Below, in pieces: positions 57,287 to 61,081 of a DNA stretch of 64,000 nt (position 1 is its first letter; each line of letters starts with the position of its first letter). Made by a program: the position numbers and the translations under genes. The notes below the pieces were generated by a model, which ran no database searches, was not told the DNA's origin, and saw only the letters and a list, made by a program, of their open reading frames with translations. The stretch is from positions 1 to 64,000 of the forward strand of contig JAUZPB010000011.1 in the NCBI GenBank assembly GCA_030706145.1, in the 5' to 3' direction. This DNA comes from Bacteroidota bacterium. GTDB lineage: Bacteria; Bacteroidota; Ignavibacteria; Ignavibacteriales; SURF-24.

Positions 57287-57634
57287 TTATTCTTTACCAA
57301 ATCTCCTACTAATAATATTAGCAACAATAAATCCAAGCCCTGTAAATGCAAAAAGACAAAATGGTATCCAATATTCTTTCGTTGTAAAATCTTCCAGAAG
57401 CATACCAATACCTAAACCAAAGCCAAAGAAAATTGATATTGTTCCAATCTGAGCAAGAAGAAAAGGGTTAGATCTTTTCTTTTCTTCAAAAAAGAGTTTA
57501 ATCTCTTCTGTACTTAAGCCTTTTTCTATCAGCATTTGTTTTTCCCTGGATCTGAAATAAATAACCGATATCCAGATTAAACCGATAGTTAAGAAAAATA
57601 CTATCGGTATAAATGTTGCGATTACTGCTGGCAT
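57287..57634 (-). CDS. Small membrane protein, DUF6249-like
   Basis: The 115-residue protein has three hydrophobic segments: residues 5-27, about 60-80 and 88-108, with a charged cytoplasmic loop between the first two containing REKQMLIEKGLSTEEIK. This layout and the M-L-I-E-K-G motif fit the DUF6249 family, often found beside ECF sigma/anti-sigma genes. It is divergent from the sigma gene at 57921 and two promoter-like TGTAACC sites read toward it. Function unknown; a membrane stress-response partner is likely. Confidence 0.75.
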   Translation of the reverse strand: MPAVIATFIPIVFFLTIGLIWISVIYFRSREKQMLIEKGLSTEEIKLFFEEKKRSNPFLLAQIGTISIFFGFGLGIGMLLEDFTTKEYWIPFCLFAFTGLGFIVANIISRRFGKE

Positions 57635-57690
57635 AACTGACTCCTTTATTTAATTCTTTTCATTTAATTAACTTTTTTCTTTATTGTTAA

Positions 57691-57717
57691 GACTTTATAT
57701 TGTATGAAAAGGTTACA
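57691..57717 (-). promoter_or_regulatory. ECF-type promoter candidate 1 (toward the DUF6249-like gene)
   Basis: On the minus strand TGTAACC (57711-57717) is followed after 17 bases by GTC (57691-57693), 57 bases before the ATG at 57634. An AAC-containing -35 with a GTC -10 is the usual ECF promoter form. Confidence 0.65.
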
Positions 57718-57730
57718 ATTTTCATTTTCT

Positions 57731-57779
57731 TTCAGTAAAAACTTTTTCAGTAAAAACTTTTTCAAAAAAAACTTTTTTG
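57731..57779 (+). repeat. Short tandem repeat in the divergent promoter region
   Basis: The unit TTTCAGTAAAAACTTT occurs twice in a row and a third time with the CAGT replaced by CAAA. It lies between two of the TGTAACC sites and is AT-rich, so it could be a bent or protein-bound spacer, or simple slippage. Confidence 0.5.
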
Positions 57780-57810
57780 TACAACATTATTTTCAACCTC
57801 TTGAACTTAT

Positions 57811-57836
57811 GACAAGTAAAAAGGCAAAAGGTTACA
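57811..57836 (-). promoter_or_regulatory. ECF-type promoter candidate 2 (toward the DUF6249-like gene)
   Basis: On the minus strand TGTAACC (57830-57836) is followed after 16 bases by GTC (57811-57813). It is the same motif as candidate 1, in the same direction and about 120 bases further upstream. Confidence 0.5.
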
Positions 57837-57882
57837 GATTAATCTCTTAAGAGAAATAGTCTTTATCTTTCTACAAGAAAAG

Positions 57883-57909
57883 TGTAACCTTTCTTATTTA
57901 GTTCTTGTC
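57883..57909 (+). promoter_or_regulatory. ECF-type promoter candidate 3 (toward the sigma gene)
   Basis: TGTAACC (57883-57889) is followed after 17 bases by GTC (57907-57909), only 11 bases before the ATG of the sigma gene at 57921. This would make a nearly leaderless, self-activated sigma transcript. Confidence 0.6.
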
Positions 57910-57920
57910 AAAAGTAAACA

Positions 57921-58487
57921 ATGAAAAACTTAAGTGACATAGAAATCATCGAATCGGTAAAGAGGGGCAACCAGGCTGACTTCTCATTATTAGTAGACCG
58001 GTATAAGGAAAGGGCATATTCGCTCTTACGGCGGATGCTAAAAAATGATTTTGATGCACAGGAAGTTTTGCAGGATTGTTTCTTGAAAGCATACCGTTCA
58101 CTTGATTCTTTTAGGCAAGATGCGAAATTTTCCACATGGTTTTACAGAATCGTATATAATTCGGCTTTAACATTTTTATCGAGCAAAAGACGAAAAGAGG
58201 AAAATGAGATGACATCACTAGAGGATGTATTGGAACTAAAAAGCTATGATACACAAATATATGCTGAGAGTGAAAATGCAGCCCAGTTTATTAATAAAAT
58301 GGTAGAAAAACTTCCCGAGAAATACTCTGCAATAATAAACATGTTTTATATGGATGATATGTCCTTAGATGACATCAGTAAAATAACCGGCTTATCGATC
58401 GTCAATATAAAGGTAATACTTCACCGTTCGCGCAATGCTTTAAGAGAATTGATCTTAAAGCATAAATATTATGAGGAGCTATTATGA
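57921..58487 (+). CDS. RNA polymerase ECF sigma factor
   Basis: A 188-residue ECF sigma with sigma-2 region (VDRYKERAYSLLRRML, AQEVLQDCFLKAYRSLDSF, FSTWFYRIVYNSALTFL) and sigma-4 helix-turn-helix (MSLDDISKITGLSIVNIKVILHR). The start ATG at 57921 gives the family N-terminus. Its stop overlaps the anti-sigma start by 4 bases. The TGTAACC-N17-GTC motif just upstream suggests autoregulation. A divergent membrane-protein gene carries the same motif. It is distinct from the ECF factor at 3486. Confidence 0.93.
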   Translation: MKNLSDIEIIESVKRGNQADFSLLVDRYKERAYSLLRRMLKNDFDAQEVLQDCFLKAYRSLDSFRQDAKFSTWFYRIVYNSALTFLSSKRRKEENEMTSLEDVLELKSYDTQIYAESENAAQFINKMVEKLPEKYSAIINMFYMDDMSLDDISKITGLSIVNIKVILHRSRNALRELILKHKYYEELL

Positions 58488-59026
58488 ACCATTTAACTGA
58501 TGAGACATTAAATAAATATATAGACAACGAAATGGATGTTCACGAATTGAACATAGTAAATGAGCACATAAAGACCTGTGAGATTTGTCTGCAAAAATTA
58601 AAAGCTCAAAAGGTCGTCGATACTAATCTTAGAGGTATTAGTCAGTTCAAGCTTCCCGAGGGATTTACGGAAAATCTAATGCAGCAAATAGCTGTTATTA
58701 GACCTGCAGGCATTCATTTCAAGCCTCAAAAAAGTTATCTTTTAAGGTTTATTTTTCTTTTCTTAGGGTTAGCAATTCTGACGTTTTTCATTTTAAGTTT
58801 GTATGAGGTTTCTCAAAGCAGTAGCAGTTTATCAGCAGATAAATTGTTCTGGTATCCGGAATTTTTAAAGAAAATCTCTGTAGAAGTTAATTCTTACAGC
58901 GCATTATTTAAAAGTCAGACTATTTCTTTGATTGGAGGCATTTTTACTTTCATTCTTTTAATCAGTGCATATTTCATCTATGATTCACATAGAGATTTCA
59001 AGAACAGGTTAAACAATCTAAGATAA
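58484..59026 (+). CDS. Zinc-finger (zf-HC2) transmembrane anti-sigma factor
   Basis: The N-terminal domain has the HIKTCEICLQKL motif (H-x3-C-x2-C; about residues 28-39), the zinc-binding anti-sigma signature. Unlike most such proteins it has two membrane segments, near residues 85-107 and 145-165, separated by an extracytoplasmic loop of about 35 residues, and it ends in a basic tail. It overlaps the sigma gene by 4 bases and should hold that sigma at the membrane until an envelope signal releases it. Confidence 0.86.
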   Translation: MNHLTDETLNKYIDNEMDVHELNIVNEHIKTCEICLQKLKAQKVVDTNLRGISQFKLPEGFTENLMQQIAVIRPAGIHFKPQKSYLLRFIFLFLGLAILTFFILSLYEVSQSSSSLSADKLFWYPEFLKKISVEVNSYSALFKSQTISLIGGIFTFILLISAYFIYDSHRDFKNRLNNLR

Positions 59027-59734: not shown

Positions 59735-60466
59735 CTACCAGCTACCGCTAGAGCCACCTCCACCGAAAGAACCGCCGCCTCCGCTAAATCCGCCAAAGGA
59801 GCCTCCACCACCAGAGCTACCGCCTCCAAAGCCACCAAAACCACCTCCGCCTCCGTAGAAGATAAATCCTCCGCCTCCGCGCCTTCTTCCACCACCTCTA
59901 AAGAACAAGCTTATAATAATAAAAAGAATAATAAGAAATATGGTAGGTAATCCTTTCCCATTTCCTTTTTTCCTTTTTAAATCCGTAGCTTTATATTCTC
60001 CTGCAGTAGCAGCTTTAATGGCATCGATTCCCTGTTTAATACCCTGGTAATAGTCGCCACTTCTAAAATAAGGTCTAACTTCATTTCTAAGGATTGAGCT
60101 ACAAAGGGCATCAGGCATAGAGCCTTCCAGACCGTAACCTACCTCTATTCTTAATTTTCTATCATCTTTGACAACAAGGAACAAAATTCCATTATTATTC
60201 TTTTTTGAACCTATTTTATTTTCTTTTGCAACCTGATAGGAATAATCCTCAATTGGGTAACCATTTAGTGTAGGTATTATTAAAAGGACTAATTGGCTAG
60301 AGGTAGAATCGCTAAAAGCTCTAAGGTCATTATTAAGGTAGTTTAGCTGTTCTGAAGAGAGCGTATTAGTATAATCATTTGCCCAGGCCTGAAGATGCAC
60401 GACTTCAGGTTGCTGAGCAAATAAAAATGTCTGAAGAAAAAGTAAAAAGTAAAATAATTTTTTCAT
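59735..60466 (-). CDS. TPM-domain protein with glycine-rich tail
   Basis: A signal peptide (MKKLFYFLLFLQTFLFAQQ) precedes a TPM domain (about residues 28-150; LRIEVGYGLEGSMPD), a membrane helix near 180-197 (TIFLIILFIIISLFF) and a tail of almost only Gly, Ser and Phe ending GSSGSW. TPM proteins are related to the YgcG group and to photosystem repair proteins; in bacteria the biochemical role is unclear. It directly follows the LemA gene, the standard LemA-TPM pair. The C-terminal low complexity is real, with the frame open to the stop. Confidence 0.87.
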   Translation of the reverse strand: MKKLFYFLLFLQTFLFAQQPEVVHLQAWANDYTNTLSSEQLNYLNNDLRAFSDSTSSQLVLLIIPTLNGYPIEDYSYQVAKENKIGSKKNNNGILFLVVKDDRKLRIEVGYGLEGSMPDALCSSILRNEVRPYFRSGDYYQGIKQGIDAIKAATAGEYKATDLKRKKGNGKGLPTIFLIILFIIISLFFRGGGRRRGGGGFIFYGGGGGFGGFGGGSSGGGGSFGGFSGGGGSFGGGGSSGSW

Positions 60467-60475
60467 ATAAAACTA

Positions 60476-61081
60476 TTAAAACTCAACTTTTGGGGCATTT
60501 TCTGCGCCTGGTTGAGCCTTGAAATACTGTTTTTCGTGAAAGCCAGCGATTCCAGCAAAAATTACAGCTGGAAATCTTTTAACTCTTGTATTATAATCCT
60601 GTACGACTTGATTAAAATTCATTCTAGCCACGGTAATCCTATTTTCAGTCCCTTCAAGCTGAGCCTGCAGATTCAGGAAGCCTTCGTTTGCCTTAAGGTT
60701 AGGATAGTTTTCAACAGTAACAAGGAGTCTAGACAATGCAGAGCCGAGATTTGCCTGTGCAGACTGGAATTTCTGAAAAGCCTTGGGATCGTCAAGAATT
60801 TCAGATGTAGCCTTAATTGAGCCAACACTAGCTCTTGCTTCTGTTACTCTTGTTAAGACATCTTTTTCAAAATTTGCATATCCTTTAACTGTATTTACAA
60901 GGTTAGGGATCAGGTCACTTCTTCTCTGATATTGGTTTTCAACCTGGCTCCAGTTTTGATTAACAGCTTCATTAAGAGAAACTAAATTGTTGTAAACGCC
61001 AACACCCCATCCAACCAAAGCAACAACAATAATCAAAACAACCGCCGCGATTGAACAGCCTACAAGTAGACCTCTTTTCAT
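60476..61081 (-). CDS. LemA family protein
   Basis: The 201-residue protein has one N-terminal membrane helix (residues 5-30) and the LemA helical core with WSQVENQYQRRSDLIPNLVNTVKGYANFEK, read in blocks, and RFPAVIFAGIAGF near the C-terminus. The N-terminal Cys (position 9) is in a membrane segment, so it is probably not a lipoprotein. The function of the family is unknown. The TPM-protein gene lies 10 bases downstream. Confidence 0.92.
   Translation of the reverse strand: MKRGLLVGCSIAAVVLIIVVALVGWGVGVYNNLVSLNEAVNQNWSQVENQYQRRSDLIPNLVNTVKGYANFEKDVLTRVTEARASVGSIKATSEILDDPKAFQKFQSAQANLGSALSRLLVTVENYPNLKANEGFLNLQAQLEGTENRITVARMNFNQVVQDYNTRVKRFPAVIFAGIAGFHEKQYFKAQPGAENAPKVEF

What the first reader, a model, noticed from the sequence alone, without database searches (positions are those of the whole stretch)
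57691..57909. Three copies of an ECF-like promoter motif between a sigma gene and a divergent membrane-protein gene
TGTAACC followed after 16 or 17 bases by GTC occurs three times in about 220 bases: twice pointing toward the DUF6249-like gene (57711-57717 with 57691-57693; 57830-57836 with 57811-57813) and once toward the ECF sigma gene (57883-57889 with 57907-57909). An AAC-bearing -35 and GTC -10 are the established form of ECF promoters. The simplest reading is that the sigma factor drives its own gene and a divergent membrane protein, making a small regulon that can be searched genome-wide. The copy before the sigma gene would give an almost leaderless transcript.
Basis: partly seen in the sequence, partly recalled or inferred. 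Interest (0 to 1): 0.68.

Follow-up and report, generated by a model that had tools for sequence, protein, structure and literature searches.

The report
Conserved self-controlling ECF sigma-factor promoters
A stress-type sigma factor in an Ignavibacteriales bacterium almost certainly switches on its own gene, a divergent small membrane-protein gene and a few distant envelope genes through one DNA motif kept across the whole bacterial order, and its own mRNA is predicted to begin almost exactly at the start codon.

Summary
TGTAACC-N16/17-GTC occurs three times in 220 bp; 0.02 are expected per 64 kb. In 57 orthologous loci there are 115 copies in 14 kb of sigma/DUF6249 spacer and 1 copy in 325 kb elsewhere. 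The sigma-facing site is in 57 of 63 loci and a DUF6249-facing site in 59. The refined element is TGTAACC-N17-GTCwwAA. The literal motif is not enriched genome-wide (14 hits against 22 for the reversed control), but hits carrying the extended -10 sit in front of genes. One target outside the locus is order-wide: a DUF4097 (Toastrack) gene has the promoter 21-42 nt upstream in 27 of 30 genomes. ECF plus DUF6249 neighbours recur across the phylum. Outside the order the -35 can drift to TGAAAC or TGCAAC on both sides, together with one recognition-helix residue. In this order the sigma -10 lies 9-12 nt before an invariant ATG, predicting a leader of about 0-3 nt; this spacing is not kept elsewhere in the phylum. 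No transcript was measured. It is a new, well-delimited member of a known kind: an autoregulated ECF sigma, anti-sigma and small envelope regulon.

The parts
57883..57913 (+). Sigma-facing promoter: -35 TGTAACC 57883-57889, 17-bp spacer, -10 GTC 57907-57909, extended GTCAAAA to 57913; predicted start 57918-57921
   Evidence: same site in 57 of 63 orthologous loci, GTC 9-12 nt from the ATG in 54 of 57
57807..57836 (-). Distal DUF6249-facing promoter: -35 57836-57830, 16-bp spacer, -10 GTC 57813-57811, extended GTCATAA
   Evidence: tandem DUF6249-facing sites in 22 of 63 loci by the exact scan
57687..57717 (-). Proximal DUF6249-facing promoter: -35 57717-57711, 17-bp spacer, -10 GTC 57693-57691, extended GTCTTAA; predicted start about 57682-57680
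   Evidence: at least one DUF6249-facing site in 59 of 63 loci
57921..58487 (+). ECF sigma factor, 188 aa
   Evidence: Sigma70_r2 E 7.8e-17, r4_2 E 1.3e-11; nearest solved relatives SigW and sigma-E; one orthologue in 50 of 59 order genomes
58484..59026 (+). Anti-sigma candidate, 180 aa: N-terminal H-x3-C-x2-C zinc motif and hydrophobic segments; overlaps the sigma stop codon, so co-transcribed by inference
   Evidence: sub-threshold hits to RsrA (TIGR03988, E 6.3e-6, below cut-off) and zf-HC2 (E 0.0088, below cut-off); an orthologue passes the zf-HC2 cut-off
57287..57634 (-). DUF6249 membrane protein, 115 aa, divergent from sigma; AlphaFold2 model all-helical, three long hydrophobic helices with a short helix between the first two
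   Evidence: PF19762 E 1.4e-12; model mean pLDDT 92.7; no PDB fold match

Best explanation
The three sites are promoters of the adjacent ECF sigma factor. When the co-encoded anti-sigma releases it, the sigma factor binds TGTAACC (-35) and GTCwwAA (-10). It transcribes its own sigma/anti-sigma operon (positive feedback), the divergent DUF6249 gene from one or two tandem promoters, and a small set of unlinked genes for envelope or secreted proteins, of which a DUF4097/Toastrack gene is the order-wide constant. The sigma promoter lies so close to the ATG that the mRNA should have a leader of about 0-3 nt. Shown: position, conservation, orientation, spacing and co-occurrence with the sigma gene. 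Inferred: that this sigma reads the sites, the transcription starts, the anti-sigma function, and the envelope-stress role.
For: (1) 115 copies in 14 kb of orthologous spacer against 1 in 325 kb elsewhere. (2) Sites face both genes at promoter distances: sigma 9-12 nt; DUF6249 mostly 22-127 nt from GTC to ATG. (3) The extended motif GTCwwAA was derived from the locus alone, yet it separates own-genome hits: 3 of 3 unlinked noncoding hits carry it and at most one coding hit comes close. (4) In 59 order genomes the extended motif has 85 hits against 13 for the reversed control, and at least one hit in 40 of 50 genomes with the sigma gene against 1 of 9 without (Fisher p 1.5e-4). (5) The DUF4097 gene carries the promoter in 27 of 30 genomes, against 1 in the reversed control and 0.5 in shuffles; one of the three lacking it is the only genome of the 30 without the sigma gene; no related ECF gene lies within the fetched flanks. 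(6) Of 30 DUF6249 loci across the phylum, 29 have an ECF gene beside them (27 divergent, 2 co-directional), most with the same motif. (7) In other Ignavibacteria the -35 becomes TGAAAC or TGCAAC on both sides, and the residue aligned with sigma-E S172 is T/A in 7 of 7 there but V in 57 of 61 order proteins and 15 of 15 Bacteroidia.
Against: The bare motif is not enriched genome-wide. Unlinked hits exceed the reversed control only modestly (28 against 13, p 0.014); 6 of the 28 are in coding sequence and 5 are neither coding nor close to a start codon. Each genome returned about 10-35 first-look candidates for the sigma query, so other ECF factors may share some unlinked sites. G022 and G056 have the sigma gene but no motif at DUF4097. 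The residue-165 correlation may reflect few evolutionary events. There are no RNA data.
Confidence: 0.9

Rival explanations
1. The motifs are promoters of a different ECF factor (or a shared ECF specificity) that activates this locus from outside; the local sigma reads something else.
For: Many ECF candidates per genome; ECF regulons can overlap, as suggested for the SM6 motif in Flavobacterium psychrophilum (PMC9723704).
Against: The motif tracks presence of this sigma (40/50 versus 1/9), stays with it across the phylum in divergent and co-directional layouts, and drifts together with its recognition-helix residue.
Confidence: 0.06
2. TGTAACCTTT is an operator for a separate DNA-binding regulator rather than a -35 element.
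For: The first half is the longest conserved block and is repeated in both orientations in a short spacer.
Against: A second block GTCwwAA is kept at 16-18 bp, the geometry of ECF promoters, and every site faces a gene start at promoter distance.
Confidence: 0.02
3. The sigma mRNA is not near-leaderless: the main start site lies upstream (for example a housekeeping promoter), and the close site is minor.
For: Basal expression needs some sigma-independent transcription; L049 and L072 have sigma-facing sites at 70 and 149 nt; outside the order the spacing is 14-77 nt.
Against: 54 of 57 sites at 9-12 nt, invariant ATG, strong codon periodicity from codon 2 and few in-frame alternative starts in the first 22 codons.
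Confidence: 0.2

Closest known systems
Classical autoregulated ECF sigma/anti-sigma modules (sigma-E, SigW, SigR type)
   Same: AAC-bearing -35, GTC-type -10, sigma co-transcribed with an anti-sigma, positive autoregulation; these are the stated hallmarks of early-described ECFs (PMC8103513). SigW and sigma-E are the nearest solved relatives.
   Different: -35 TGTAACC rather than TGAAAC or GGAACTT (known consensuses from my own knowledge); divergent DUF6249 partner; near-leaderless sigma gene.
Flavobacterium psychrophilum SM6 / Porphyromonas gingivalis SigP regulons
   Same: ECF regulons in the Bacteroidota/Ignavibacteriota group that involve envelope or secretion genes (PMC9723704; PMC4800418).
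   Different: Those targets are T9SS genes. NCBIfam sigma_PG0214 matches the window sigma only below its cut-off (97 versus 130 bits). The published SigP motif is unlike TGTAACC-N17-GTC.
PSP/Lia envelope-stress networks with Toastrack (DUF4097) proteins
   Same: A DUF4097/Toastrack protein is an order-wide predicted target; the PSP survey links Toastrack to membrane stress and in one context to a sigma factor (PMC11237479).
   Different: Here the Toastrack gene is unlinked and has an apparent signal peptide, whereas that paper predicts Toastrack to be intracellular; no PspA or LiaRS link was tested.

Membership tests
[quoted passage not shown]
   Pfam Sigma70_r2 and r4_2, 188 aa, no other domain
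Autoregulated ECF module | AAC-bearing -35 and GTC/CGT-type -10 upstream of the sigma gene, conserved in orthologues | tested here: met
   57 of 63 loci; 115 versus 1
Autoregulated ECF module | Cognate anti-sigma in the same operon | tested here: inconclusive
   Overlapping downstream ORF with H-x3-C-x2-C and hydrophobic segments, homologues downstream in most loci, but no family cut-off passed by the window protein
Autoregulated ECF module | Transcription from these sites depends on this sigma | not testable with these tools
   No RNA data or genetics
SigP / GFO_1088 family (NF058625) | Score above the curated cut-off | tested here: not met
   97.1 versus 130 bits
SigW (TIGR02948) / RpoE (TIGR02939) equivalogs | Score above the curated cut-off | tested here: not met
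   116 versus 243 and 108 versus 236 bits
Numbered ECF-Hub group | Group profile match | not tested
   No ECF-Hub profiles were available
Leaderless mRNA | Transcription start at or within a few nt of the start codon | not testable with these tools
   Spacing predicts 0-3 nt; no start-site map

The most novel reading that the evidence does not exclude
Across a whole bacterial order, a stress sigma factor is always made from a leaderless mRNA while its co-regulated genes keep ordinary leaders. The feedback loop would then favour ribosomes or conditions that prefer a 5'-terminal AUG, an added translational control of the sigma factor that arose in this lineage only.
Probability: 0.25. Interest if true: 0.75.

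Novelty: new member of a known kind. Interest (0 to 1): 0.52.

Why it matters
It gives a precise promoter code, a small predicted regulon (sigma/anti-sigma, DUF6249, DUF4097/Toastrack) and a lineage-wide near-leaderless sigma gene in Ignavibacteria. My searches of the open-licence library found no paper on an ECF regulon there. It also links DUF6249, a domain of unknown function, to one ECF clade across the phylum, and offers a natural pair of promoter drift and recognition-helix change for testing -35 readout.

Tried and rejected
A bare-motif genome scan as evidence of a regulon was rejected, because the reversed control has more hits. A role for the two tandem DUF6249 promoters through a small leader ORF (MLYKKVFFEKVFTEKVFTERK) was rejected: not conserved in 12 relatives. 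DUF6249 as PspB- or RseC-like: only weak Pfam hits (E 0.04-0.3), no PDB sequence match and no fold match (best E 1.9). Fixed helical phasing between the divergent -35 elements: distances scatter from 20 to 310. Filing the sigma in a named NCBIfam equivalog: below every equivalog cut-off inspected. Literature searches for TGTAAC with Bacteroidetes ECF factors, DUF6249 with sigma factor, ECF with anti-sigma and DUF4097, or Ignavibacteria with extracytoplasmic function found nothing.

Full report
Observation. They lie in a 286-bp spacer between a DUF6249 gene (57287-57634, minus) and an ECF sigma gene (57921-58487, plus), which overlaps a downstream ORF (58484-59026) with an H-x3-C-x2-C zinc motif and hydrophobic segments, typical of zinc-type anti-sigma factors. 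The anti-sigma label is an inference: the window protein has only sub-threshold hits to RsrA and zf-HC2, while an orthologue passes the zf-HC2 cut-off.

Conservation. The named relatives with the closest sigma proteins are Ignavibacteria, many of them Melioribacteraceae or Ignavibacteriales. In 63 loci a sigma-facing site is found in 57 and at least one DUF6249-facing site in 59; 22 loci have one sigma-facing and two DUF6249-facing sites, as in the window. In 57 loci with both genes the exact motif occurs 115 times in 14,056 bp of spacer and once in 325,422 bp elsewhere. The refined element is TGTAACC, then T-rich, a spacer mostly of 17, then GTCwwAA. On the DUF6249 side a purine follows 10-11 nt after GTC in 57 of 58 sites, a plausible start site.

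Near-leaderless sigma gene. In 54 of 57 loci GTC ends 9-12 nt before the sigma ATG. That ATG is invariant in 57 of 57 orthologues, codon-position entropy shows coding constraint from codon 2 (0.54, 0.42 and 1.35 for positions 1, 2 and 3 over codons 2-10), and in-frame alternative starts are rare in the first 22 codons. With a start 6-11 nt after GTC the leader is about 0-3 nt; in the window it would start at 57918-57921. DUF6249, DUF4097 and nearly all other predicted targets have 21 nt or more between GTC and ATG. Outside the order the sigma-facing spacing is 14-77 nt, so this is a feature of the lineage. Leaderless mRNAs are rare in sequenced relatives: about 3.7% of B. thetaiotaomicron 5' UTRs are under 10 nt (PMC7366714) and 5.5% of mRNAs are leaderless in F. 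psychrophilum (PMC9723704).

Genome-wide test. Position and the extended -10 tell hits apart. Of the 11 hits outside the locus, the three noncoding ones all have GTCwwAA and lie 32-51 nt before genes (alpha/beta hydrolase, a 376-aa exported protein, DUF4097), whereas the hits in coding sequence lack it, apart from one near match, GTCTAAG. Of 22 control hits 21 are in coding sequence. In 59 genomes of the order the extended pattern has 85 hits against 13 for the control: 57 at the sigma locus and 28 elsewhere. Of the 28, 17 are in promoter position, mostly before genes with apparent signal peptides, 6 are in coding sequence and 5 are neither. Genomes with the sigma orthologue have at least one hit in 40 of 50 cases; those without in 1 of 9. 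Caveat: unlinked hits exceed the control only modestly (p 0.014).

A conserved unlinked target. The DUF4097 (Toastrack, PF13349 E 7.7e-27) gene was taken from the own-genome hits and sought in the order. A promoter of this type lies 21-42 nt before its ATG in 27 of 30 genomes (15 TGTAAC, the rest one base off; -10 GTCTAA or, once, GTCTTAA). The same kind of scan gives 1 of 30 on reversed sequence and 0.5 on shuffles. The three exceptions are two genomes with the sigma gene (G022, G056) and the one genome of the 30 without it (G026). No gene related to this ECF family lies in the fetched flanks.

Phylum-wide. PF19762 is in 43 of 148 phylum genomes; of 30 loci read, 29 have an ECF gene within 1.5 kb, 27 divergent and 2 co-directional. 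Dysgonomonas, Prevotella and Brumimicrobium loci have DUF6249 upstream of sigma in one apparent operon, with TGTAACC-N17-GTC before DUF6249. In other Ignavibacteria lineages the motif becomes TGAAAC or TGCAAC on both sides (A/A in L203, L211, L212; C/C in L214; C and A in L216). Recognition-helix residue 165, aligned with S172 of E. coli sigma-E and with the threonine of SigW, is V in 57 of 61 TGTAAC proteins of the order and 15 of 15 in Bacteroidia, and T or A in 7 of 7 TGAAAC/TGCAAC proteins. That S172 faces the -35 element and that SigW reads TGAAAC are from my own knowledge; the paper could not be read here. Few independent events may lie behind this correlation.

Verdict. The sites are promoters of the neighbouring ECF factor (confidence 0.9): an autoregulated module with a small envelope-type regulon. 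The kind is known; the family, its motif, the DUF6249 and DUF4097 targets and the lineage-wide near-leaderless sigma gene appear undescribed in what I could search. The function of DUF6249 stays open: an all-helical membrane model with high confidence and no structural match.

Noticed in passing
window 57725-57785: An A/T-rich near-perfect repeat (GAAAAAGTTTTTACT) lies between the two DUF6249-facing promoters and makes a small ORF, MLYKKVFFEKVFTEKVFTERK, on the distal transcript; not conserved in 12 relatives.
   Followed up: yes
L010:1579-2709 and L173 (predicted target): An exported protein of about 380-390 aa full of GINxGGLA-type repeats has the motif 33-51 nt upstream in two families; the own-genome copy has no Pfam family.
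   Followed up: partly
L176 and L178: A 478-481 aa exported protein has TGTAACCAAA-N-CGTCTAAA upstream in two species of one genus; possibly another ECF factor with a CGTC -10.
   Followed up: no
window 59735-61081: A LemA-like gene (60476-61081) next to a gene for a protein with a glycine-rich C-terminus, possibly a TPM-domain protein (59735-60466), just downstream of the sigma operon and convergent with it; domain names by eye only.
   Followed up: no
L233, L237 and L244, flanks of the DUF4097 gene: In several genomes the DUF4097 gene is followed by a ~235-aa exported protein and/or a gene resembling DUF5103 (by eye), which might be co-transcribed.
   Followed up: no
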